From assembly GCF_030689685.1 (NCBI RefSeq), contig NZ_JAUYEY010000006.1:1-64000 (forward strand): DNA of 64,000 nt, read 5' to 3'. The notes beneath the pieces were generated by a model. That model made no database searches and was not told the DNA's origin. It was given only the letters and a program-made list of their open reading frames with translations. Position numbers and translations under genes: made by a program. This stretch comes from Polaromonas sp. (GTDB lineage Bacteria; Pseudomonadota; Gammaproteobacteria; Burkholderiales; Burkholderiaceae_C). Positions 8,290 through 43,446 of this stretch are shown here, one piece after another. Within the stretch, counting starts at the first letter, position 1. Every line of letters begins with the position of its first letter.

Positions 8290-9096
8290 ATGAAAAAATT
8301 ACTTGTTTTGTCGACAGTCGCGGCGGCCTCTGGCCTGTTTGCCGTGAATGCCTCCGCCATGGACATCCTGGCACGCGTCATTTCCAGCACGCCGGTGGTG
8401 CAGCAGGTCAGCGTGCCGCAGCAGGTCTGCACCACGCAGCCGGTGGTTACGCAGTCGCCAGGCTCAGGCGCAGGTGCCGTGATGGGCGCGCTGGCTGGTG
8501 GCGCCATGGGCAATGCCATCGGCGACGGCGGCGGTCGCGCGCTGGCCACCATGATCGGCCTCGTCGGCGGTGCCATGATCGGCAACAACATCGAAGGCAA
8601 CCGCAACCAGGTGCAAAACCTGCAGCAGTGTGGCACCCAGACCAGTTACCAGAACCGCACCACGCACTACAGCGTGGTTTATGAATACGCCGACAAGCAA
8701 TACACCATCCAGATGCCGAGTGATCCCGGCCCGTACGTCCGGCTGCAGGTCACACCCGTGGGCGCCATGCCGTCGCCGCAGGCCTCGATCCAGCCCGGTT
8801 TTACCCAGCCCCAACAGGTCCAGCCGGTGTATGGACAACCGGTTTATAACCAACCGGTGTATTCGCAGCCCGTGTATAGCCAGCCCGTGTATAGCCAGCC
8901 GGTGTATAGCCAGCCGGTGTATAGCCAACCGGTGTATTCGCAACCGGTCTACAGCCAGCCGGTCTATGTGCAGCAAGTACCGGTCGTGGCTTACCCCGGT
9001 TATTACTCGCGGCCTTATTACCCGCCCATCGGCCTGTCGCTTAATTTCGGCTACAGCCGTGGTGGCTACGGACATGGGCACGGTCACTGGCGCTGA
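8290..9096 (+). CDS. Glycine-zipper envelope protein with QPVYx repeats
   Basis: 268-residue exported protein. The ATG at 8290 is preferred over an in-frame TTG at 8284, because it gives a clean signal peptide (MKKLLVLSTVAAASGLFAV, cleavage after NASA). A glycine-zipper segment follows (about 61-100, GAVMGALAGGAMGNAIGDGG), as in Rickettsia 17-kDa/SlyB-type outer-membrane proteins. Then come ten pentapeptide repeats QPVY(S/G/N/V) at about residues 178-227, and a Tyr/Gly/His-rich end. I infer an outer-membrane-associated protein with a flexible repeat arm. No enzymatic motif is visible. A strong terminator follows, so it is probably monocistronic. Confidence 0.85.
   Translation: MKKLLVLSTVAAASGLFAVNASAMDILARVISSTPVVQQVSVPQQVCTTQPVVTQSPGSGAGAVMGALAGGAMGNAIGDGGGRALATMIGLVGGAMIGNNIEGNRNQVQNLQQCGTQTSYQNRTTHYSVVYEYADKQYTIQMPSDPGPYVRLQVTPVGAMPSPQASIQPGFTQPQQVQPVYGQPVYNQPVYSQPVYSQPVYSQPVYSQPVYSQPVYSQPVYSQPVYVQQVPVVAYPGYYSRPYYPPIGLSLNFGYSRGGYGHGHGHWR
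8821..8970 (+). repeat. Tandem 15-bp coding repeat (10 units)
   Basis: Exactly ten 15-bp units such as CAGCCGGTGTATAGC encode QPVYG, QPVYN, seven QPVYS and QPVYV. Units 4-7 are almost identical at DNA level while the outer ones use alternative Ser and Gln codons. Such arrays change copy number by slippage. The unit is a multiple of three, so changes keep the frame. Confidence 0.95.
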
Positions 9097-9139: not shown

Positions 9140-11072
9140 ACATCCAGGCTTTGTTGAGTTGATCGCCCACACCGGCCATCACGCTGTCCCAGTCGCCAGG
9201 CCGGAGCTGGCGGCACAGGGTGGCACTCGGGTACCACGGGCTGTCCGACCGCTCCAGCATCCAGCGCCAGTCCGGGTTGAAGGGCAAGAGCAGCCATAGC
9301 TTGCTGCCCAGCGTCCCCGCCAGGTGGGCCACGCTGGTGTCGACGCTGACGACGCCGTCCATCAGCGCGCACAGGGCGGCGGTGTCCGTGAAGTCATGCA
9401 GTTCGTCGCCAAAATTCAGCATCTCCGGATGCGCTTGGAGGGTTCTCCTGTCCGCATCGCGAACGTCCTTTTGCAGGCTCACGTACTGCGGGCCCGGCGG
9501 CAGGTGTTCAAGCAAATCGGCCAGCGCGATGCTGCGGTTCTGGTCGTTCATGTGGGAGGCATTGCCGCTCCATACCAGGCCCACGCGGGGAGCACGTTTT
9601 GGCGCCAGCCTGGCCTCCCAGGCGGTCCTCCTGTCGTAACTGGCAGGCCCGCTGGTCAAGATCGCCGCAGGCGGGGGAATGCCGGGCAGCCGGGTGTTGA
9701 AGGCCAATGGCAGGCTCAACAAAGGGCAGTGGAAGTCAAACAGCGGCAACGGCTGGCCCCTCGCGACCAGTTCATCCACCCCTTCCAGCCCCTGAAGCAG
9801 ACTCGCCAATGTTTTTTGCACTTCGAGAATCACCCGCGCGCCCAGGCCACTCACCTCCCTGGCATACCGGCAAAACTGCAGTGTGTCGCCCAACCCCTGC
9901 TCCGCGTGCAGCAGAATCGTTTTTCCTTCCAGCGGCTGCTGTCCCAACCACAAGGGTTGCGCAAAGCCCCGCAGGTCGGCGGGTTCGAGTTTTTTTTGCT
10001 TCCACCGCCACTCATATTCGTGCCAGCCCCGCTCGAAATCGCCGAGTTGCAGTTTGCAGAGGCCGAGGTTCCAGTGCGCTTCCGCGTTGGCGGGATTGAT
10101 CGCGATGGCCTGCTCGTAACTGGCCGGCGCTTCGGCATGGCGTCCCAGTTCGGTCAGCGCAACGCCGTGGTTGTTCCAGGCGTTGTACCAGGCCATGGCG
10201 CGGGACGGCGCCACTTCAATGGCGCGGTCATAACTTTCAATGGCCTCCGCATGGCGCCCCATCTCACTCAGCGCAATGCCGCGATTGAGATGCGCCGCAG
10301 CATGGTCAGGCTTGAGCGAAAGCGCGCGGTCGTAGCTCTCCACAGCCTCTGCATAACGCCCCAGATCGTGCAAGACCAGGCCGCGGTTGTCATAGGCGTC
10401 GACAAACGAAGGATTCAGGGCCAGGGCCTTGTCGCAACTCTCCAGGGCCTGCGCCTGCCACCCCATCTTCCTGAGAACATTGCCGCGGTTGCTGTAACAG
10501 TCGGGCGTCGGCTGGACATCAAGGGCCTTGTTGTAGCTGGCGAGTGCGGCCTCGGGCTGTCCCAACTCCGCCAGGGCATTGCCGCGGTTGGTCCAGACTT
10601 GCGCGTACGCGGGCCGGGCCACCAGCGCCTTGTCATAACTGTCCAAAGCCTCGCGGTGCCGCTTCAGCACGCTCAGCATAACCCCGGCCGAAGCATGCGC
10701 TTCGGCAAATCCGGGGTTCAACGCCCCGGCGCGAAGATAGCTGTCAGCAGAAGCCTCCTGTTGCCCGAGCGCGCCAAGGGCGATCGCATGGTTGTAGCGC
10801 GCGTTGGCGTTGTTCGGGTCAATCGCAAGCGCGCGGGCTATCAGCTCCGCCGCGCTCTGGAGTTGCCCTGTGTTGAGGTCCACCACGCCCATCAGGTGAA
10901 GCGCATCAAAATTATCTGACTGCACCTCAAGCACCTGTGCAAACAAGGCTCTGGCTTCTGCCATCTTTCCCTGCTGCTGCAAGCCAAGCGCCTGGACAAG
11001 TATGGCGTGAATCCGCGCCGCCTGACTCACGGGTTGTTGCGGCTGGGGAATAAGTGTCGGGGCTCGGCTCAT
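9138..11072 (-). CDS. TPR protein with heptosyltransferase-like C-terminal domain (copy 1)
   Basis: 644 residues from the ATG at 11072, chosen because MSRAPTLIPQPQQ matches the start of the neighbouring paralogue. The first two thirds are consecutive tetratricopeptide repeats with the W..G..L...G....A...Y..AL pattern. The last third, from about 390, contains LLHAEQGLGDTLQFCRYA, VGLVWSGNASHMNDQNRSI and VSVDTSVAHLAGTLG. These resemble the GT9/GT-B glycosyltransferase fold seen in many TPR-glycosyltransferase fusions. A donor or acceptor cannot be named. The stop lies in the terminator T-run shared with the convergent gene. Confidence 0.85.
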   Translation of the reverse strand: MSRAPTLIPQPQQPVSQAARIHAILVQALGLQQQGKMAEARALFAQVLEVQSDNFDALHLMGVVDLNTGQLQSAAELIARALAIDPNNANARYNHAIALGALGQQEASADSYLRAGALNPGFAEAHASAGVMLSVLKRHREALDSYDKALVARPAYAQVWTNRGNALAELGQPEAALASYNKALDVQPTPDCYSNRGNVLRKMGWQAQALESCDKALALNPSFVDAYDNRGLVLHDLGRYAEAVESYDRALSLKPDHAAAHLNRGIALSEMGRHAEAIESYDRAIEVAPSRAMAWYNAWNNHGVALTELGRHAEAPASYEQAIAINPANAEAHWNLGLCKLQLGDFERGWHEYEWRWKQKKLEPADLRGFAQPLWLGQQPLEGKTILLHAEQGLGDTLQFCRYAREVSGLGARVILEVQKTLASLLQGLEGVDELVARGQPLPLFDFHCPLLSLPLAFNTRLPGIPPPAAILTSGPASYDRRTAWEARLAPKRAPRVGLVWSGNASHMNDQNRSIALADLLEHLPPGPQYVSLQKDVRDADRRTLQAHPEMLNFGDELHDFTDTAALCALMDGVVSVDTSVAHLAGTLGSKLWLLLPFNPDWRWMLERSDSPWYPSATLCRQLRPGDWDSVMAGVGDQLNKAWM

Positions 11073-11132: not shown

Positions 11133-13160
11133 TCAGCTCAGTGCGCTGGCCAGGTCCTCGCCCACCGTCTTCAGCACCGCCTCCCAGTTTCCGGAGAGCT
11201 CCTGGCGGTAGAGAACGACATCGGGGTACCAGGGCGTGTCGGTGCGTTCCAGCATCCAGCGCCAGTCGGGGTTGAAGGGCAGCAGCACCCAGGTCTCGCA
11301 CCCAAGCGTGCCGGCCAAGTGGGCGACGCTGGTATCGACGCTAATGACCAGATCCATCAACCCGCACAGTGCTGCGGTATCGGTGAAGTCCTGAAGTTCG
11401 TCGCCCAGGTGAAGGATGTCAGGATGCGCGGCCAGCGTTGCAGCGTCGGCTTCGCGCACTTCCTTCTGCAGGCTGACGTACTGCACGCCTTGCGGCAAGG
11501 CCGCCAGCAGGTCGCTCAGTGCGACGCTGCGGTTGTGGTCGTTTTTATGCGTCGGGCTTCCGCTCCAGGCCAAGCCCACGCGGGGACGGGTTTTCACCCC
11601 GAGCCGGACTTCCCAGGCCCCCGTCCTGCCGGCGACGGCTTTCGCGCCGGAAAGACCCGCCGCAGCCGGAGGAATACTGTGCAGCCGCGTTTTAAAAGCC
11701 AGCGGCAAGCTCATCAGGGCGCAGTGGCAGTCGAACGGCGGCAGCGGGTGACCCCTGCCCACCAGTTCGGTCACGCCCTCCAACTCCCGCAGCAGCCCGA
11801 GCAGGGCCGGCTGCACTTCGAGGATCACCCGCGCACCCAGCCCGGCCACTTCTTTCGCATACCGCTTGAACTGCAAGGTGTCGCCCAGCCCCTGTTCGGC
11901 ATGCAGCAGGATGGTTTTTCCCTCCAGCGGCTCCGCACCCGACCACCGGGGCTGCGGAAAGTCGCGGATTCCAGCCGGGTCCTGCTGCGTGCACTTCAAG
12001 CGCCATTCGTACTCCGGCCAGCCCCGTTCAAAGTCGCCGGACTGCAATGCACAGATGCCCAGGTTCAAGTGCGCTTCCGGGTCGCTTGGGTCCATCGCCA
12101 GCACGCGTTCATAACTGGCGAACGCTTCGGCATGGCGCCCCAGGTCTGTCAATGCGACGCCGTGGTTGCTCCAGGCGTCCGCATAGGCCTGCCTGACGGC
12201 CAACGCGCGTTCATAACTCTCCAGCGCAGCCTGGTGCTGCCCCAGGCCGCGCAAGGCAATGCCCCGGTTGTTCAGCGCCTCGGGGTGCAGTGGCTGGAAG
12301 GCCAGCCACTGGTCGTAACTGGCCACGGCTTTCTCATACAGCTTCATCGCGAGGAGGGACAAGCCACGGTTGTAGTACGCCATGGCATAAGCCGGCCGCA
12401 AGGAGATGGCGCGGTCATAGCTGCCGACGGCCTCGCCATGGCGGGCCATGGCCTGAAGCGCACTGCCCCGTCCGAAATGGGCCTGAGCACGATCAGGGTT
12501 CAGGGCCAGGGCGCGGTCATGGCTTTCGACCGCCTGTGCAAGACGTCCCGCAGCATGCAACGCCAGGCCGCGGTTGTCGTGCGCATCGACGAAGTCCGGC
12601 TGGAGTTCGATGGCCTTGCCAAAACTGGCAAGTGCAGCCTCGGATTGCCCCAATGCCGCCAGGACATTGCCGCGATTGTTCCAGACCTGCGTCAAGTCAG
12701 GGCGGACGGCCAAAGCGCTGTCATAACTGTCGCGTGCCTCCTGGTGCCTGCCTAGCATTGCCAGCGCATTGGCGGCAGCGCAATGCGCGTCTGAAAAACC
12801 GGGATTGAGCGCTGCGGCACGCAGGTGACTTTGTGCGGACGCTTCGTGCTGCTGCAGTGCAGCCATCACCGTGCCATGGTTGTGGTGCGCAGGGGCATTG
12901 TTGGGGTTGACCATGATCGCGCGGCCAATCAGATCGGCCGCTTTTGCCGGTTGACCGGCGCTGAATTCCACCACCCCTAGCAGATGAAGCGCATCGAAAT
13001 TGGCCGGCTGCATTTGCAGCACCTGGGCATACAGCGCGCGGGCTTTATCCAGTTTTCCCTGCCGCTGCAAGGCCACCGCCTGCATGAGCCTCTCCTGGAC
13101 CTGCGCTGCCGGGCCGGCGGCTTTTTGCGGCTGGGGAATGAATTTCGGGGCTCGGCTCAT
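11133..13160 (-). CDS. TPR protein with heptosyltransferase-like C-terminal domain (copy 2)
   Basis: 675-residue paralogue of the next gene downstream, with the same architecture: about eleven TPR units and then a GT-B-like domain with LLHAEQGLGDTLQFKRYA, VGLAWSGSPTHKNDHNRSV and ISVDTSVAHLAGTLG. The DNA around both starts is alike (ATCCGGT-ATG-AGCCGAGCCCCGA), so duplication included the upstream signal. The two genes are separated by about 60 bp and point the same way. The core catalytic-looking motifs are conserved in both copies while the TPR regions differ in unit number. That fits divergence in partner recognition rather than decay. Confidence 0.85.
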   Translation of the reverse strand: MSRAPKFIPQPQKAAGPAAQVQERLMQAVALQRQGKLDKARALYAQVLQMQPANFDALHLLGVVEFSAGQPAKAADLIGRAIMVNPNNAPAHHNHGTVMAALQQHEASAQSHLRAAALNPGFSDAHCAAANALAMLGRHQEARDSYDSALAVRPDLTQVWNNRGNVLAALGQSEAALASFGKAIELQPDFVDAHDNRGLALHAAGRLAQAVESHDRALALNPDRAQAHFGRGSALQAMARHGEAVGSYDRAISLRPAYAMAYYNRGLSLLAMKLYEKAVASYDQWLAFQPLHPEALNNRGIALRGLGQHQAALESYERALAVRQAYADAWSNHGVALTDLGRHAEAFASYERVLAMDPSDPEAHLNLGICALQSGDFERGWPEYEWRLKCTQQDPAGIRDFPQPRWSGAEPLEGKTILLHAEQGLGDTLQFKRYAKEVAGLGARVILEVQPALLGLLRELEGVTELVGRGHPLPPFDCHCALMSLPLAFKTRLHSIPPAAAGLSGAKAVAGRTGAWEVRLGVKTRPRVGLAWSGSPTHKNDHNRSVALSDLLAALPQGVQYVSLQKEVREADAATLAAHPDILHLGDELQDFTDTAALCGLMDLVISVDTSVAHLAGTLGCETWVLLPFNPDWRWMLERTDTPWYPDVVLYRQELSGNWEAVLKTVGEDLASALS

Positions 13161-28207: not shown

Positions 28208-28231
28208 TTCGGTGCGCATTGAATCTGCCAG

Positions 28232-28313
28232 TGGGGGCCATGGATCCGGCTTTGCCGGTCCATAGGCGCCCGCCCCCTTGAGGGGGAGGCACTCACGAAG
28301 TGAGGGCCACGGG
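28232..28313 (-). repeat. Family E GC-rich repeat, copy 3, overlapping a gene end
   Basis: Inverted relative to copies 1 and 2. It holds CTTGAGGGGG and GGCTTTGCCGG stems. The stop codon and last residues (PVALTS) of the acyl-CoA synthetase lie inside it. Confidence 0.75.
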
Positions 28314-30203
28314 GGTGTTTCTATATCGTTCTTCTTCCTGCAGCCTGAGCACACGCCGCTGCACCTTGCCGGTGGTGGTCATGGGCAAGGCATCAATGAA
28401 TTCGATCTCTTTGGGGTACTCGTAAGGGGCCAGCAGCGCCCTGACGTGGGCTTGCAGTTCTGCCACCAGTTTCAAGTCAAATTGGCCTGTAGCCCCCGTC
28501 TGTTGTGCGCGAGCAGCTATGAAATCAGGAGCAAGTACCACATAGGCCTTGACCACCGCGCCGCGCTCGCTGTGCGGCTTGGGCACCACGGCGGCATTGG
28601 CCACCGCCGGGTGCTTGACCAGACAGTTCTCGATCTCGCCGGGGCCGATGCGGTAGCCCGCCGCCTTGAACACATCGTCGGCCCGGCCTTCGTACCAGAG
28701 ATAACCGTCTGCATCACGCACGGCCAGGTCGCCGGTGCGGCACCAGTCACCTGTGAACTTGGCCTGCGTGGCGGCTTCTTTTTTCCAGTAACCCAGAAAA
28801 AAGATCGGGTCTGGGTCGCCGTGAATGTCAAAGCGGTTGACCGCCACATCGCCCGGCACACCGACCGGGCATTCATGCCCTTCATCATCGATCACCGCGA
28901 CCCGATGGCCCGGGTAGCCCTTGCCCATGCTGCCTGGCTTGGCCGGCCAGAGCGCAGAACAATTGCCAATCACGTAGTTGATCTCGGTCTGGCCAAACAT
29001 CTCGTTGACGGTGACGCCAAGTTCATCGCGGCAGTACGCAAACACTGCGTCGCCGACCGCTTCTCCCGCGCTCATCATGGCTTGCAGCTTGAGGGTGAAC
29101 TGCTGGCGCGGCTGCGGGTAGGCCTTCATCATGGCTTTGAGCGCCGTAGGGAACAGGAAGGTGTGCGTCACGCCCTGCTCTTGCATCAGCGTGAAGGCCA
29201 GCTCGGGGCTGAAGCGCCCGTTGAAGGCAACGATGGGCCGGCCGAAATACAGCGTGGGCAACAAGGCGTCGATCAGCCCGCCGGTCCAGGCCCAGTCTGC
29301 GGGGCTCCAGAAGACAGCGCTGCTGTCGTCCCTCACCCCAACCCTCTCCCCCGGGGAGAGGGAGGTATAAGCTCCCTCTCCCTCACCCTCTCCGTCTCCG
29401 TCTCCTTCTCCCTCTCCCGCTTGCGGGAGAGGGTTGGGGTGAGGGTCAGGGTGAGGGCTGAACCCAAACCAGTTCTGGCTGCAAACAAAACCCGGCAGGT
29501 TGCCGATCAGCGCGCGGTGCGCCAGCAGCGCGCCCTTGGGCGGTCCGGTGGTGCCACTGGTGTAGATCAATATGGCCGCATCGTCGGCTTTGGTTTTGAC
29601 GGCGGTGAAGGCACGCTGTTGCGCGGCCAGGGCAGTGTCGTAATCGAGGTCGCCCCGCCCCGCCGCCGCACCAGCGGCGATCACCGTGCGCAGGGCCGGG
29701 CAGCGGCTGCGTATCGCCTGGATGTTGGCCATCGAGCTCTCGTCGCAAATCGCCAGCACCGCGTCGCTGTCCTGCAGCCGGTATTCCAGCGCCTCGGGTC
29801 CGAACAGCATGGACAGCGGCATGGCCACGGCACCCATCTGGAACACCGCCATGTAGGCGACGGCAGTCTCAAAGCGCTGCGGCATCACGATGGCGACCCG
29901 GTCGCCGCCTTTCACGCCGAGCTGCACCAGCGCATGGCTCAGTGCATCGGCCCCCTGCTGAAGTTGCAAATAGGTATAAAAAGTGGTCTCCGCCCCCGGC
30001 TGGTGGGCGTGGATAGCTACTCTTTTAATAGCATTTTTACCACCATCGGTGTGCGCCCAGCGCCTGCAGCAGACCTCGGCAATGTTGAAGTCGTCATCGA
30101 CCTGCCAGCGGAAAGCGCCGTGCAGGGCGGCGTAATGATCGGGTGGCGCTGCGGACGCGATGTCCCTGCCTTGACTGTGTTGCGTTGCAAGTCTCTTTAT
30201 CAT
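28293..30203 (-). CDS. Acyl-CoA/acetyl-CoA synthetase-like AMP-forming ligase with in-frame repeat insertions
   Basis: 636 residues from the ATG at 30203, preferred over 30263 for its ribosome site TTGGAGTG and because the longer form overlaps the divergent gene. ANL-superfamily motifs are ILIYTSGTTGPPKGALLAH (P-loop), NEMFGQTEINYVIGN, WCRTGDLAVRDADGYLWYEGRADD and TTTGKVQRRVLR with the catalytic Lys of the C-terminal domain. The family is acetyl/medium-chain acyl-CoA synthetase; the acid is not predictable. Three insertions are visible: about 45 residues rich in GEGEGDGDG between the P-loop and the FWSPADWAWTGG block, and two family A repeats nearer each end. All keep the frame and no core motif is lost, so the enzyme may be active. 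Confidence 0.88.
   Translation of the reverse strand: MIKRLATQHSQGRDIASAAPPDHYAALHGAFRWQVDDDFNIAEVCCRRWAHTDGGKNAIKRVAIHAHQPGAETTFYTYLQLQQGADALSHALVQLGVKGGDRVAIVMPQRFETAVAYMAVFQMGAVAMPLSMLFGPEALEYRLQDSDAVLAICDESSMANIQAIRSRCPALRTVIAAGAAAGRGDLDYDTALAAQQRAFTAVKTKADDAAILIYTSGTTGPPKGALLAHRALIGNLPGFVCSQNWFGFSPHPDPHPNPLPQAGEGEGDGDGEGEGEGAYTSLSPGERVGVRDDSSAVFWSPADWAWTGGLIDALLPTLYFGRPIVAFNGRFSPELAFTLMQEQGVTHTFLFPTALKAMMKAYPQPRQQFTLKLQAMMSAGEAVGDAVFAYCRDELGVTVNEMFGQTEINYVIGNCSALWPAKPGSMGKGYPGHRVAVIDDEGHECPVGVPGDVAVNRFDIHGDPDPIFFLGYWKKEAATQAKFTGDWCRTGDLAVRDADGYLWYEGRADDVFKAAGYRIGPGEIENCLVKHPAVANAAVVPKPHSERGAVVKAYVVLAPDFIAARAQQTGATGQFDLKLVAELQAHVRALLAPYEYPKEIEFIDALPMTTTGKVQRRVLRLQEEERYRNTPVALTS
28479..28528 (-). 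repeat. Family A repeat, copy 3, inside acyl-CoA synthetase CDS
   Basis: Minus strand reads CCTGATTTCATAGCTGCTC-GCGC and ends GGGGGCTACAGGCCAATTTG. In the protein it encodes roughly DFIAARAQQTGATGQFDL, between AYVVLAP and KLVAELQAHV, where family members are normally contiguous. Confidence 0.75.
29331..29445. repeat. Family B inverted-repeat element inside acyl-CoA synthetase CDS
   Basis: 115-bp element whose ends are a perfect 20-bp inverted repeat, CCTCACCCCAACCCTCTCCC. Each arm has its own hairpin (CCCTCTCC/GGAGAGGG) and a pyrimidine-rich core lies between. On the coding strand it gives NPLPQAGEGEG, then GEGEGEGAYTSLSPGE, low-complexity protein. NPLPQAGEG-type peptides from such elements are widespread in proteobacterial genomes. 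Confidence 0.88.
29984..30032 (-). repeat. Family A repeat, copy 4, inside acyl-CoA synthetase CDS
   Basis: Minus strand GCTATTAAAAGAGTAGCTAT-CCACGCCCACCAGCCGGGGGC encodes about AIKRVAIHAHQPGAETT in frame, between DGGKN and FYTYLQLQQGADAL. Confidence 0.75.
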
Positions 30204-30210
30204 CACTCCA

Positions 30211-31182
30211 ATGTACAAAGAAAAGCGCCTCTCCCGCAGCGAGTTAGTCCCTATACGCGGCATCGACTACCACGTTCGTCACTGGGGCGAGGCTTCAAGC
30301 AGCCTGCCGCCGCTGGTGCTGGTGCACGGCTGGATGGACGTGGCCGCGTCCTACCAGTTTGTGGTCGATGCCCTGTCCGATACCTTCGTGCAAGGCCGCA
30401 GCATCATCGCGCCCGACTGGCGTGGTTATGGAAAAACCGGCAACGGGGGCATCCTTCGACAAGCTCAGGACGAACGGACGGATGCAGTGGGGAGCGCGGG
30501 AGCACCCGATTGCTTCTGGTTTCCCGACTACCTGGCCGACCTGGATTTTCTGCTGGATCATTACGCCCCCGGCCAGGCTGTAGACCTGGTCGGCCACAGC
30601 ATGGGCGGCAATGTGGCCATGTTGTACGCCGGCGTGCGGCCCGAGCGCATTCGCAAACTGGTCAACCTCGAAGGTTTTGGCATGCCGGCCACGCGGCCCA
30701 GCCAGGCAGCCGGGCGCTTTGCCAAATGGATGGATGAGCTCAAAAGCCTGCACAAGGGCGAGCTGGCGCTCAAACCCTATAAGGACGCCGACGGCGTGGC
30801 CAGGCGCCTGATGCGCACCAACCCCAGGCTGCCTGCAGACAAGGCCGACTGGCTGGCGCGGCATTGGGCTGCGCCGGACGCGCAGGGCCAATGGAACATC
30901 CTGGGCGATGCGGCCCACAAAATCGTCAACGCGCAGCTCTACCGCGTCGATGAGGTGCTGGAGATCTACCAGCGTATCAGCGCCCCCACGCTGGCCATTG
31001 AAGCCTCGGACGACTCGCTGGGCAAATGGTGGCAGGGCAAATACACCTTGGCCGAGTACCATGAACGCCTCAAATCCGTGCCGCAGGTCAGTACCGCCGT
31101 GGTTCAGGACGCCGGCCACATGCTGCACCACGACCAGCCCGAACAATTGGCCGAATTGATCACCGGTTTTCTGGGCGAATAA
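30211..31182 (+). CDS. Alpha/beta hydrolase with an in-frame mini-repeat
   Basis: 323-residue alpha/beta-fold hydrolase. The oxyanion segment is LVLVHGWMDVAAS, the nucleophile elbow is GHSMGGNVAM (Ser in GHSMGG), and the acid/His region is AIEASDDSLGKWW and DAGHMLHHDQPEQLAE. The stretch GGILRQAQDERTDAVGSA between DWRGYGKTG and FWFPDYLADLD is a repeat-derived insertion; relatives go almost directly from RG(Y/F)G to WFPDYLAD. The ATG at 30211 has no clear ribosome site and lies 7 bp from the divergent synthetase start. Substrate unknown. Confidence 0.87.
   Translation: MYKEKRLSRSELVPIRGIDYHVRHWGEASSSLPPLVLVHGWMDVAASYQFVVDALSDTFVQGRSIIAPDWRGYGKTGNGGILRQAQDERTDAVGSAGAPDCFWFPDYLADLDFLLDHYAPGQAVDLVGHSMGGNVAMLYAGVRPERIRKLVNLEGFGMPATRPSQAAGRFAKWMDELKSLHKGELALKPYKDADGVARRLMRTNPRLPADKADWLARHWAAPDAQGQWNILGDAAHKIVNAQLYRVDEVLEIYQRISAPTLAIEASDDSLGKWWQGKYTLAEYHERLKSVPQVSTAVVQDAGHMLHHDQPEQLAELITGFLGE
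30452..30478 (+). repeat. Family C mini-repeat inside hydrolase CDS
   Basis: TCCTTCGACAAGCTCAGGAC followed by GAACGG. The same DNA word gives FDKLRTNG in another frame and LRQAQDER here. It is a known widespread bacterial mini-repeat, by memory. Inserted in frame after RGYGKTGNGG. Confidence 0.8.
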
Positions 31183-40761: not shown

Positions 40762-43446
40762 ATGCTCCGAGAAGGCCAACCCGCCGTCATCCACCGCGCC
40801 GACTACACCGCCCCCGCCTACTGGATTGACACCGTCGATCTGTCATTTGACCTGGACCCAGCCAAAACGCGCGTACTGAACAAAATGACGCTGCGGCGCA
40901 ATCCGGATGTTGCGATGCAGCCGCTCCAGCTCGACGGCGAAGAGCTCAACCTGGCGCGCGTGCTGGTCAATGGCCAGGGTGCGTCCTTCCGCATGGAAGG
41001 CGACAAACTGGTGCTGGACAATCTTCCGGATACTTTCGAGCTGGAAATTTTTACCACCTGCGCGCCTGCCAAAAACACCAAGCTGATGGGCTTGTACGTC
41101 AGCAACAACTCTTTCTTCACGCAGTGCGAGGCCGAAGGCTTCAGGCGTATCACCTACTTTCTGGACCGCCCGGACGTGATGGCCAGCTACACGGTGACGC
41201 TGCGCGCCGACCCAGCGGCCTACCCGGTGCTGCTGTCCAACGGCAACCTGGTCGAGCAGGGCACTCTGGATGATGGCCGCCACTTTGCCAAGTGGGTAGA
41301 CCCGCACAAAAAACCCGCCTACCTGTTTGCCCTGGTGGCCGGTCAGCTGGTTGCGCGCGAACAGCGCATCACCTCACGCGCCGGCAAAGACCATTTGCTA
41401 CAGGTCTATGTGCGGCCCGGTGACCTGGACAAAACCGAACACGCGATGGCCTCGCTGATGCATTCGGTGGCCTGGGACGAAGCGCGTTTTGGCCTGAGTC
41501 TGGACCTGGAGCGTTTCATGATTGTTGCCACCAGCGACTTCAACATGGGCGCGATGGAAAACAAGGGCCTGAACATCTTCAACACCAAGTACGTGCTGGC
41601 GAGTCAGGCCACCGCCACAGACACCGATTATTCGAACATCGAAAGTGTGGTGGGTCACGAATACTTTCACAACTGGACCGGCAACCGCATTACCTGCCGG
41701 GACTGGTTTCAGCTGAGCCTGAAAGAGGGCCTGACTGTTTTCCGTGATCAGGAGTTTTCGCAGGACCTTTGCGCGGCACCGTCGGCCCGCGCCGTCAAAC
41801 GCATTGAAGACGTGCGTGTGCTGCGCACCGCGCAGTTCCCCGAGGACGCGGGCCCGATGGCGCACCCGGTACGGCCTGACAGCTATATCGAGATCAGCAA
41901 CTTCTACACCGTCACGATTTACGAAAAAGGCGCCGAAGTTGTGCGCATGATGCAAACGCTTGTGGGCAGGGATGGTTTTGCAAAAGGCATGAAGCTCTAC
42001 TTTGAGCGCCACGACGGCCAGGCCGTGACCTGCGACGACTTTGCACAGGCGATAGCCGACGCCAACCCCGCATCCGACCTGGCAGGCCTGTTGCCGCAGT
42101 TCAAGCGCTGGTACAGCCAGGCCGGCACGCCGCGTGTGTATGGCACGGGGGTGTATGACGCCGCCGCGCGCACTTACACGCTGACCCTGTCGCAAAGCTG
42201 CGCGCCCACACCGGGCCAGGCCGCCAAGGAACCCTTTGTGATCCCGGTTGGCCTGGGTCTGCTCGGCGCCGACGGCGCTGACCTGCCGCTGCAGCTCGAA
42301 GGCGAAGCCGCGCCAGTGGCCGCGCCGCGCACTTTTGTGCTGACCGAAGCCAGCCAGGCGCTGAGCTTCATCAACATGGATGCGCAACCCGTGCCATCCA
42401 TCCTGCGCGGCTTCAGCGCGCCGGTGGTGCTGGAGTTCGACTACAGCGACGCACACCTGCTGCACCTGCTGGACAAGGACATCGACCCCTTCAACCGCTG
42501 GGAAGCCGGGCAACGCCTGGCGGTTCGCAGCGCTATCAAATCCATAGCTGCCAGTGCTTATCCGGCAGGGGCTGAGCCGCTGAATGATGCTTATCTCGAG
42601 GCCATGCGCAGCGTGCTGCGCGACCCTGCACTGGACGCCGCCTTCAAGGATCTGGTGCTGACGCTGCCGGGTGAAACCTACATCGCCGAACAGCTTGACG
42701 TGGTGGACCCGCAGCGCATTCACGCGGTGCGCGAAGCCATGCGCGCACAACTCGCCACCGCGCTGGCCGAGGACTGGGCCGTGGTGTACGCAGCCAACCA
42801 GGACAACGGCGCCTACACGCCCGACCCACTGTCTTCGGGACGGCGCGCGCTGGCCGGCATGGCGCTCACGCACTTGTGCCTTGCCGCCGTCGCCAGCGGC
42901 GATACCGTCTGGCCCGGCAAGACCTTCCAGCGCTTCAAGGACGCGGGCAACATGACCGACCGCTTCAACGCGCTGGCGGCGCTGGTCTCCAGCGGCCACC
43001 CGCTGGCGGACCAGGCCCTGCCCCGCTTCCACGCCATGTTCAAGGACGAAGCGCTGGTCATCGACAAATGGTTCAGCTTGCAGGCCGGCGCGCCGGACCG
43101 CAGCGGCAACATCCTGCCGGCCGTCAAGCAGCTCATGAAACACGCCGACTTCAGCCTGCGCAACCCGAACCGCGCGCGCAGCGTCGTCAGCACCTACTGC
43201 CAGGGCAACCCGGCGGCTTTCCACCGCGCAGACGCAGCAGGCTACGTCTTCTGGAGTGAGCGCGTGATTGAGCTCGACGTGATCAACCCGCAAGTCGCCG
43301 CCCGGCTGGCGCGCGCGCTGGACCGCTGGAGCAAGCTGGCTGAACCGTATCGCAGCGCCGCCCGCGAAGCGATTGCCCGGGTTGCCGCCAAGTCTGATTT
43401 GAGCAAGGACACGCACGAGGTGGTCTCGCGCGCTTTAGCCGACTAA
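40762..43446 (+). CDS. pepN: Aminopeptidase N
   Basis: 894-residue M1 zinc metallopeptidase, close to E. coli PepN in length. It has the substrate-binding [10 protein letters not shown], the zinc site [11 protein letters not shown] (His299 first ligand) and the third ligand Glu in [14 protein letters not shown]. It removes N-terminal residues from peptides in the cytoplasm. Within the C-terminal half, [17 protein letters not shown] is encoded by repeat copy 6. It falls in a helical-repeat domain away from the active site and keeps the frame. Confidence 0.95.
42532..42577 (+). repeat. Family A repeat, copy 6, inside pepN
   Basis: GCTATCAAATCCATAGC then TGCCAGTGCTTATCCGGC-AGGGGCTGAG. The first palindrome is well kept; the second stem has drifted. 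Confidence 0.7.

What the first reader, a model, noticed from the sequence alone, without database searches (positions are those of the whole stretch)
28293..30203. One enzyme gene carrying three in-frame repeat insertions and a repeat-made end
The acyl-CoA synthetase CDS contains two family A elements, one 115-bp family B element, and ends in a family E element, yet every ANL motif is intact and the frame is kept. The 115-bp element is not a multiple of three by itself, so target duplication or flanking loss must restore the frame. This looks like the Rickettsia palindromic elements that insert into proteins, but with several unrelated families in one gene.
Basis: partly seen in the sequence, partly recalled or inferred. 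Interest (0 to 1): 0.85.

Follow-up and report, generated by a model that had tools for sequence, protein, structure and literature searches.

The report
In-frame triplex repeats inside enzyme genes
In a bacterium related to Polaromonas, short repeated DNA pieces that can fold on themselves, reported as strictly between-gene elements in E. coli, sit in frame inside conserved genes where they would be read as extra protein loops, and in this enzyme the same loop carries such pieces, in several sequence forms, in several related genera.

Summary
The gene is an open-frame ANL acyl-CoA synthetase of a Polaromonas-like genome. Family B (29330-29457) is a genuine in-frame insert: some close relatives have a 10-aa loop there, the window 48 aa. 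Element E gives the last codons and the stop. The two family A segments are not recent gaps. The C-terminal one is an old family-A copy shared by many orthologues (19 versus 7 aa elsewhere), modelled as a helix; the N-terminal one is weak in the window.

New here: family B is the intrastrand-triplex motif (TM/PIT), reported as always intergenic in E. coli. Of the 36 elements listed for this genome (51 of 85 cores), 14 lie inside Pfam-supported genes with evidence on both sides (PutA, Mfd, DNA ligase and others). PutA and Mfd of some relatives show the empty site. Other genera carry triplex motifs of other sequence in the same synthetase loop; in five homologous inserts the four variable stem pairs change on both sides and the third strand mirrors the stem at 47 of 50 positions. 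The comparison with Rickettsia elements is apt as analogy; intragenic REPs outside Rickettsia are already published. Translation of the inserts is inferred, not shown.

The parts
28293..30203 (-). acyl-CoA synthetase CDS (ANL superfamily), 636 aa from ATG at 30203; the open frame reaches 30263
29330..29457 (-). family B insert as a whole (two inverted triplex units, spacer, 12-nt partial copy)
   Evidence: 48-aa loop versus 10 aa in L028, L045, L046; RNA fold of 29325-29460 z -8.49
29330..29362 (-). triplex unit 1: CCCTCTCCC-CGG-GGGAGAGGG-TTG-GGGTGAGGG on the coding strand
29410..29445 (+). triplex unit 2, inverted relative to unit 1 (6-nt first loop)
29363..29409 (-). spacer between the units, with hexamer-like repeats (within GEGEGDGDGEGEGEGAYT); short in L040 and L041
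28464..28537 (-). family A copy at the C-terminal site (APDFIAARAQQTGATGQFDLK), old insertion
   Evidence: helix in the model
29976..30038 (-). family-A-like segment at the N-terminal site (AIKRVAIHAHQPGAETTFYTY), weak in the window copy
28226..28317 (-). family E element giving the C-terminal codons and the stop
30445..30513 (+). insert with the family D motif in the divergent neighbour, an alpha/beta-hydrolase-like CDS 30211-31182 (name is my reading; not scanned with Pfam)

Best explanation
The gene is an intact ANL acyl-CoA synthetase that has acquired repeat DNA in frame more than once. The old event is a family A element near the C-terminus, now part of the modelled fold. The recent event is an inverted pair of intrastrand-triplex motifs (family B = TM/PIT) in a loop after WFGF; a family E element at the 3' end gives the new stop. 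Family B elements lie in many genes of this genome. Those that land in tolerant loops with a net length divisible by three and no stop are kept and would be translated as flexible, mostly Pro/Gly-rich peptides. Some loops, such as this one, are filled again in different lineages with different motifs. Shown here: the sequences, the empty sites in relatives, the recurrence and the open frames. Inferred: translation of the inserts, exposure of the loop, neutrality or mild benefit, and the way the elements move (REP-like transposition or repair-associated copying).
For: Empty versus filled loop among close relatives. Sample not chosen by insert: 135 orthologues, one per genome, of 249 other genomes of the family; loop 3, 10 or 11 aa in 78, 15 aa or more in 36, up to 50 aa. 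Perfect stems of 10 bp or more in 10 of 36 long loops versus 0 of 806 equal windows of the same CDSs. Triplex architecture in 8 of 36 sample and 10 of 28 named long loops (18 of the 19 inserts counting the window are distinct), versus 0 of 1330 windows and 0 of 3600 shuffles. B core 85 copies versus 3; 45 of 50 cores examined have the TM pattern, 39 in exact N3-N3 form, as in Table 1 of PMC4666352. 14 of 36 elements inside Pfam-supported genes; empty sites in PutA and Mfd. 17 of 21 cores in those genes share one reading phase. Family A: 68 of 69 model hits in 216 CDSs fall on the two sites; 0 in reversed, 1 in synonymous-shuffled CDSs. Model: residues 247-290 below pLDDT 50; C-site helix 559-566, blocks 551-580 at 89, 83, 88.
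Against: 22 of the 36 long loops in the sample (21 after relabelling L147 by eye) match none of my motif labels, so the loop also varies for other reasons. The B2 and B3 forms searched occur only once in G061, G002, G199 and G098, in this gene itself, so there they are not live repeats. The family-A model was built from copies found with the C-site sequence; only the N-site hits are free of that bias. The C-site length does not split the tree once: 13 changes, and the best single split misplaces 25 of 214. Only 49 of 126 long C-sites hit the A model. The named and sampled orthologues overlap (at least five identical long inserts). No expression or protein data.
Confidence: 0.87

Rival explanations
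1. Selection on nucleic-acid structure: the loop keeps a hairpin or triplex because it does something in DNA or mRNA (for example pausing between subdomains), and the sequence drifts around the structure.
For: Five ungapped homologous inserts (L018, L016, L017, L025, L238) form 50 of 50 stem cells; all 4 variable pairs change on both sides, and 0 of 500 shuffles reach the covariation score. The third strand mirrors the stem at 47 of 50 positions; best slide 36, direct register 39. The B3 form searched is single-copy in G199 and G098.
Against: 96 of 135 sample loops are short and close relatives are empty. Two other measures are weak: 20 of 500 shuffles reach four pairs changed on both sides, 297 of 500 the number of pair types. 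L025 and L238 did not pass the triplex test. Some inserts are broken (L077, L223). Five distinct rows only, with the structure chosen from them; separate insertions of different repeat variants would give the same picture.
Confidence: 0.2
2. Ordinary low-complexity loop growth: the loop expands by slippage in GC-rich DNA and only looks repeat-like.
For: The spacer in the window gene has a hexamer-like expansion, and many long loops are unclassified.
Against: Stems of 10 bp or more: 10 loops versus 0.18 expected from shuffles. Exact match to genome-wide B units. D motif in loops of three genomes with 25-36 D copies (G029, G130, G221).
Confidence: 0.05
3. Horizontal exchange: filled loops were spread between lineages by recombination of the gene, instead of repeated insertion.
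For: B, B2 and empty states are interleaved among close Polaromonas relatives; several B2 inserts and L018, L020 and L238 share a downstream flank.
Against: B, the B2/B3 forms and D are different sequences at the same loop; recognised repeats need 20 changes on the gene tree, although gains and losses cannot be told apart.
Confidence: 0.3

Closest known systems
Intrastrand triplex motif TM of E. coli (PIT / BoxC elements), PMC4666352 (abstract, sections 15 and 18, part 1 of 2 of section 20, and passages read)
   Same: Same pattern CCCTCTCCC-loop-GGGAGAGGG-N3-GGGTGAGGG, and pairs of units in inverted arrangement
   Different: The E. coli copies are always intergenic (section 18); here 14 of 36 lie inside conserved genes in frame
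Rickettsia palindromic elements (RPE); seen only through passages of the review PMC10969869; the 2002 paper is not held
   Same: Palindromic repeats of about 150 bp inserted in frame in unrelated genes
   Different: Different host; here several families in one gene and repeated filling of one loop across genera. Sequences were not compared
Intragenic GTAG/CGTC REPs (O. terrae, Thauera, Thioalkalivibrio and others), PMC3733652 (passages read)
   Same: REP units and dimers inside genes outside Rickettsia; recB of two Xanthomonas has them at about the same site
   Different: No GTAG/CGTC tag beside the B cores; triplex architecture; recurrence at one loop across a family, with controls

Membership tests
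Intrastrand triplex motif (TM/PIT) | stem, loop, purine strand, loop, mirror third strand on one strand | tested here: met
   window: stem 9, loops 3 and 3, third strand 0 mismatches
Intrastrand triplex motif (TM/PIT) | sequence CCCTCTCCC-N-GGGAGAGGG-N3-GGGTGAGGG | tested here: met
   45 of 50 cores with any first loop, 39 with N3; Table 1 seen
Intrastrand triplex motif (TM/PIT) | intergenic location, as reported for E. coli | tested here: not met
   14 of 36 elements inside Pfam-supported genes; taken as a property of the E. coli copies, not as the definition of the motif
Intrastrand triplex motif (TM/PIT) | forms a triplex | not testable with these tools
   -
Rickettsia palindromic elements | in-frame insertion in conserved genes with empty sites in orthologues | tested here: met
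Rickettsia palindromic elements | sequence relation to an RPE family | not tested
   no RPE sequences were fetched; not filed as RPE
REP (GTAG/CGTC superfamilies) | GTAG or CGTC tag beside the hairpin | tested here: not met
   GTAG in 4 and CGTC in 1 of 100 core flanks within 15 nt; GGTGAG within 20 nt in 46 of 100
REP (GTAG/CGTC superfamilies) | associated RAYT transposase | not tested
ANL acyl-CoA synthetase | AMP-binding and AMP-binding_C domains above the Pfam cut-off | tested here: met
   213.6 and 73.9 bits against cut-offs 29.9 and 24.5

The most novel reading that the evidence does not exclude
A coding loop of a metabolic enzyme is held as an intrastrand-triplex element by selection on the nucleic acid: the stem and the third strand covary across genera while the frame is kept, in some genomes where that form of the motif is otherwise absent.
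Probability: 0.2. Interest if true: 0.92.

Novelty: new variant of a known kind. Interest (0 to 1): 0.78.

Why it matters
It turns a repeat reported as intergenic and suspected of destabilising genomes into a likely source of new protein loops. It gives natural pairs of filled and empty genes in which the cost of carrying a triplex-forming, Pro/Gly-rich insert can be measured, and it makes the question of what retains such elements (tolerance, peptide, or DNA/RNA structure) directly testable. It also suggests a route from repeat to folded protein, in the old family A copy that is now modelled as a helix.

Tried and rejected
Three recent insertions: rejected for the A segments. Target-site duplication restoring the frame: I saw no clear duplication by eye; native codons GKTNA-x are replaced. 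An unusually stop-poor element: rejected, open fraction 0.67 over six frames versus 0.74 for shuffled units and 0.75 for random window stretches. GTAG/CGTC REP: rejected. Family E by one hairpin alone: CTCACTTCGTGAGTGCC with up to 2 mismatches found only the gene itself, and the control found 1; the longer query showed the family. Pattern TTTCCCCNGGGGAAA was badly chosen (it needs a middle base) and its zeros mean nothing; one search replaced it for 9 of the 24 genomes, and its pattern still does not fit the L016 form. B2/B3 as live repeats where they are in this gene: not supported for G061, G002, G199, G098. In G070 the B2 pattern has 11 matches, two of them at contig ends where pieces of this gene lie; its gene copy L031 carries B2. 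G097 and G005 have 31 and 25 B2 matches while their gene inserts are of B and B3 form. A further variable site (INYVVGN..RPGSMG) holds long, repeat-like peptides in some sample orthologues but not in the window gene; not pursued. No paper with the peptides LPLPLGEG, SLWERVRVR, LTPTLSQRE, FDKLRTNG, RQAQDER or PSPQPSPKG is in the library. Families A, D and E were not searched by DNA sequence in papers. R. ferrireducens genome paper PMC2755013: passages only, nothing on these repeats in them.

Full report
Setting. The window lies in a genome of 4.11 Mb in 103 contigs, completeness 100 and contamination 0.22. The best named matches of the gene are Polaromonas records (L039-L049). The gene is an ANL acyl-CoA synthetase on the minus strand, 28293-30203 from the likely ATG, with the frame open to 30263.

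The loop insert is real. MAFFT of the window protein with 109 orthologues shows a loop between WFGF and VFWSP of 12 aa or less in 59 of 110 rows, 52 of them exactly 10 aa (for example DGKTNAKSEA in L028), and 48 aa in the window; 51 of 110 have 15 aa or more. This set leans towards filled loops, because ranked unbroken matches first. In DNA the loop is 144 nt in the window, 96 nt in L040 and L041, and 30 nt in L028, L045 and L046. L040 and L041 carry the same kind of element with nearly the same junctions. The window differs from L040 by 48 nt: a 12-nt partial copy and about 36 nt of spacer growth, which keep the frame. Native codons were replaced, so the net +114 nt against the empty loop explains the frame without a target duplication.

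What family B is. The core CCCTCTCCC-N-GGGAGAGGG occurs 85 times in this genome against 3 for the backward pattern. Of 50 cores examined, 46 have the tail GGTGAG(GG) on one side, none on both, 4 on neither, and 14 neighbouring pairs lie 14-67 nt apart, all inverted by my reading of the list. This is the intrastrand-triplex motif of E. coli, called TM or PIT: Table 1 of PMC4666352 lists, for example, CCCTCTCCCTGTGGGAGAGGGCCGGGGTGAGGGC. That paper says the E. coli copies are always intergenic, and that the sequence forms a stable triplex in vitro while its in vivo data do not support stable triplex formation. Among the 50 cores, 39 have the exact N3-N3 form and 45 the form with any first loop. 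The window insert folds as RNA at -89.1 kcal/mol, z -8.49 against shuffles.

It is genome-wide. One search listed the first 51 of 85 cores, which are 36 elements counting the window. I examined all 36 (loci; ORFs; Pfam; contexts). Fourteen lie in genes with Pfam evidence on both sides or inside one domain: this synthetase, a biotin carboxylase (L241), an Eco57I-type methylase (L242), PutA (L246), a YgiQ-like radical SAM protein (L247), Mfd (L248), 5'-nucleotidase (L253), CobB-like (L256), a molybdopterin dehydrogenase flavoprotein (L259), an OHCU decarboxylase/M20 peptidase (L261), HsdR (L266), an HrpA-like helicase (L267), a lipoyl ligase/transferase (L270) and an ATP-dependent DNA ligase (L273). 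Seven have Pfam evidence on one side only: L251, L255 and L260, and L249, L250, L252 and L254 where the element is within 40 aa of an ORF end. Fifteen have no Pfam-supported ORF over them: four without an ORF of 100 aa (L243, L264, L265, L271), nine whose longest ORF, or one of the long ORFs, was scanned without a hit (L245, L257, L262, L263, L268, L269, L272, L274, L275), and two whose short ORFs I did not scan (L244, L258). Second ORFs over the same element were mostly not scanned. Gene names beyond the Pfam titles are my reading. In PutA, L298 and L299 lack the segment, L295 has a short other stretch, L297 carries B, and G251 (L296, L305, one genome) carries a different repeat-like stretch. 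In Mfd, L307 and L309 carry B-like inserts, L308, L310 and L314 other stretches, and L311, L312, L313, L315, L316 and L317 none. Of 21 cores in the 14 genes, 17 start in the same phase of the reading frame (10 tail-last, 6 tail-first, 1 without tail), which gives PLPLGEG or PHPxPLPxGEG-type peptides in the contexts printed; unit 1 of the window gene is the one tail-last exception. None of the 11 tail-last cores uses the phase that GGGTGAGGG closes.

The loop is filled repeatedly. To avoid choosing orthologues by their insert I took one locus from each of the 135 other genomes with a match at E 1e-100, out of 249 others of the family (29 loci there, 106 fetched). Loop lengths are 3, 10 or 11 aa in 78; 36 are 15 aa or longer; 3 are not covered. 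Among the 36, perfect stems of 10 bp or more occur in 10, against 0.18 expected from shuffles and 0 of 806 equal windows elsewhere in the same CDSs. Eight of 36, and 10 of 28 long loops among the named orthologues, have the full triplex architecture with a mirror third strand, against 0 of 1330 windows and 0 of 3600 shuffled inserts. The two sets overlap: five long inserts occur in both, one of them (L011 = L088) with a triplex. The forms differ: CCCTCTCCC, CCCTCCCCC, CCCCTTTCCC(C), CCCTCTTCCC, CCCGCCCCC. A different motif, CTTCGACAAGCTCAGG (family D), is in L033, L034 (= L078), L035, L057 and L147. The genomes of L033, L034 and L147 have 36, 29 and 25 exact D matches; the other 21 genomes searched have 0 to 10, that of L035 none. 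My labels are simple patterns, and L147 was relabelled by eye. On a FastTree tree of 214 rows without the variable segments the recognised repeats need 20 changes (shuffled labels mean 29, minimum 25), gains and losses not separated. Against a tidy picture, 22 of the 36 long loops (21 after relabelling) match no label.

Old inserts. Family A (about 65 bp, GATAGCTGCTCGCGCC...GGGCTAGAGGCC) has 40 matches in the genome, itself included. A model built from 18 copies outside this gene hits 216 CDSs (the window's included, some genomes twice) 69 times at E up to 0.01, 68 of them on the N or C site on the coding strand (19 and 49); the reversed control gives 0 and the synonymous shuffle 1. The C site is 7 aa in 73 of 135 and 19 aa in 41, and PDB chain 5u2a_A has a 12-residue gap there. 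A-model hits occur in 49 of 126 long C-sites and 0 of 88 short ones. In the AlphaFold model the C-site segment holds a helix (559-566) and a turn, while the B loop 247-290 is below pLDDT 50. The window's own N site is not significant by the model, and its hits on the tree are hardly clustered (16 changes, shuffled mean 18). The model is partly circular, because its copies were found with the C-site sequence; the N-site hits do not share that bias.

Structure covariation. Inserts of five genera by group code (L018, L016, L017, L025, L238; L020 has the same block as L018 and was left out) align without gaps over 47 nt. All 50 stem cells pair, one of them G-U; the four variable pairs all change on both sides; 0 of 500 shuffles reach the covariation score, and no slide exceeds 0.22 against 0.42. 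Two other measures are not striking: 20 of 500 shuffles reach four such pairs and 297 of 500 the number of pair types. The third strand mirrors the purine strand at 47 of 50 positions, against 36 for the best slide and 39 unmirrored; at the variable columns 17 against 9 of 20. L025 and L238 had not passed the stricter triplex test. Several B2 inserts and L018, L020 and L238 share a downstream flank (GGGC-AAGCCCAG), which L016 and L025 lack; 22 inserts compared with 1.49 Mb of fetched loci gave one match outside the loop, from a triplex unit of L081. Those loci are mostly neighbourhoods of this gene and of B copies, so this is no census. The structure was chosen from these sequences and five rows are few. 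The data allow either covariation in place or separate insertion of different variants.

Neighbour. The divergent hydrolase-like gene has a family D insert at a loop that is short in L039-L041 and L043-L046 and holds other stretches in L042, L072 and L088, among the 45 of 76 rows printed.

Known and new. In-frame palindromes are known from Rickettsia (passages of PMC10969869) and intragenic GTAG/CGTC REPs from other bacteria, Thauera included (passages of PMC3733652). What I did not find in the listings of the ten searches made (long result lists were shown only in part) is the triplex motif as a protein-coding insert, or one loop filled by different motifs across a family. The library lacks most subscription papers.

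Noticed in passing
window 42527-42574: A family-A-like stretch lies in frame inside an M1 aminopeptidase CDS (40762-43443), in the DUF3458_C domain.
   Followed up: partly
window 30445-30513: In-frame family D insert in the neighbouring hydrolase-like gene; L042, L072 and L088 have other stretches in the same loop.
   Followed up: partly
L246 (PutA of the window's genome): Besides the B insert this ORF has family-A model hits at about aa 260, 639 and 948 of the ORF.
   Followed up: no
L157, L172, L223, L226, L234-L237, segment INYVVGN..RPGSMG: A second variable loop of the synthetase, 34-44 aa instead of 7 in 74 of 135, with peptides such as APGRPKQGGTPLGGS that look repeat-made.
   Followed up: no
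L277 and L263 (window's genome): Family E matches lie inside an aromatic amino acid lyase ORF and a PaaA_PaaC ORF.
   Followed up: no
window 8791-8970: Tandem 15-bp repeats, which by my reading code QPVYS-like units.
   Followed up: no
window 9163-10116 and 11158-12111: Two neighbouring long ORFs share stretches of 71% DNA identity at a spacing of 1995: likely a tandem duplication.
   Followed up: no
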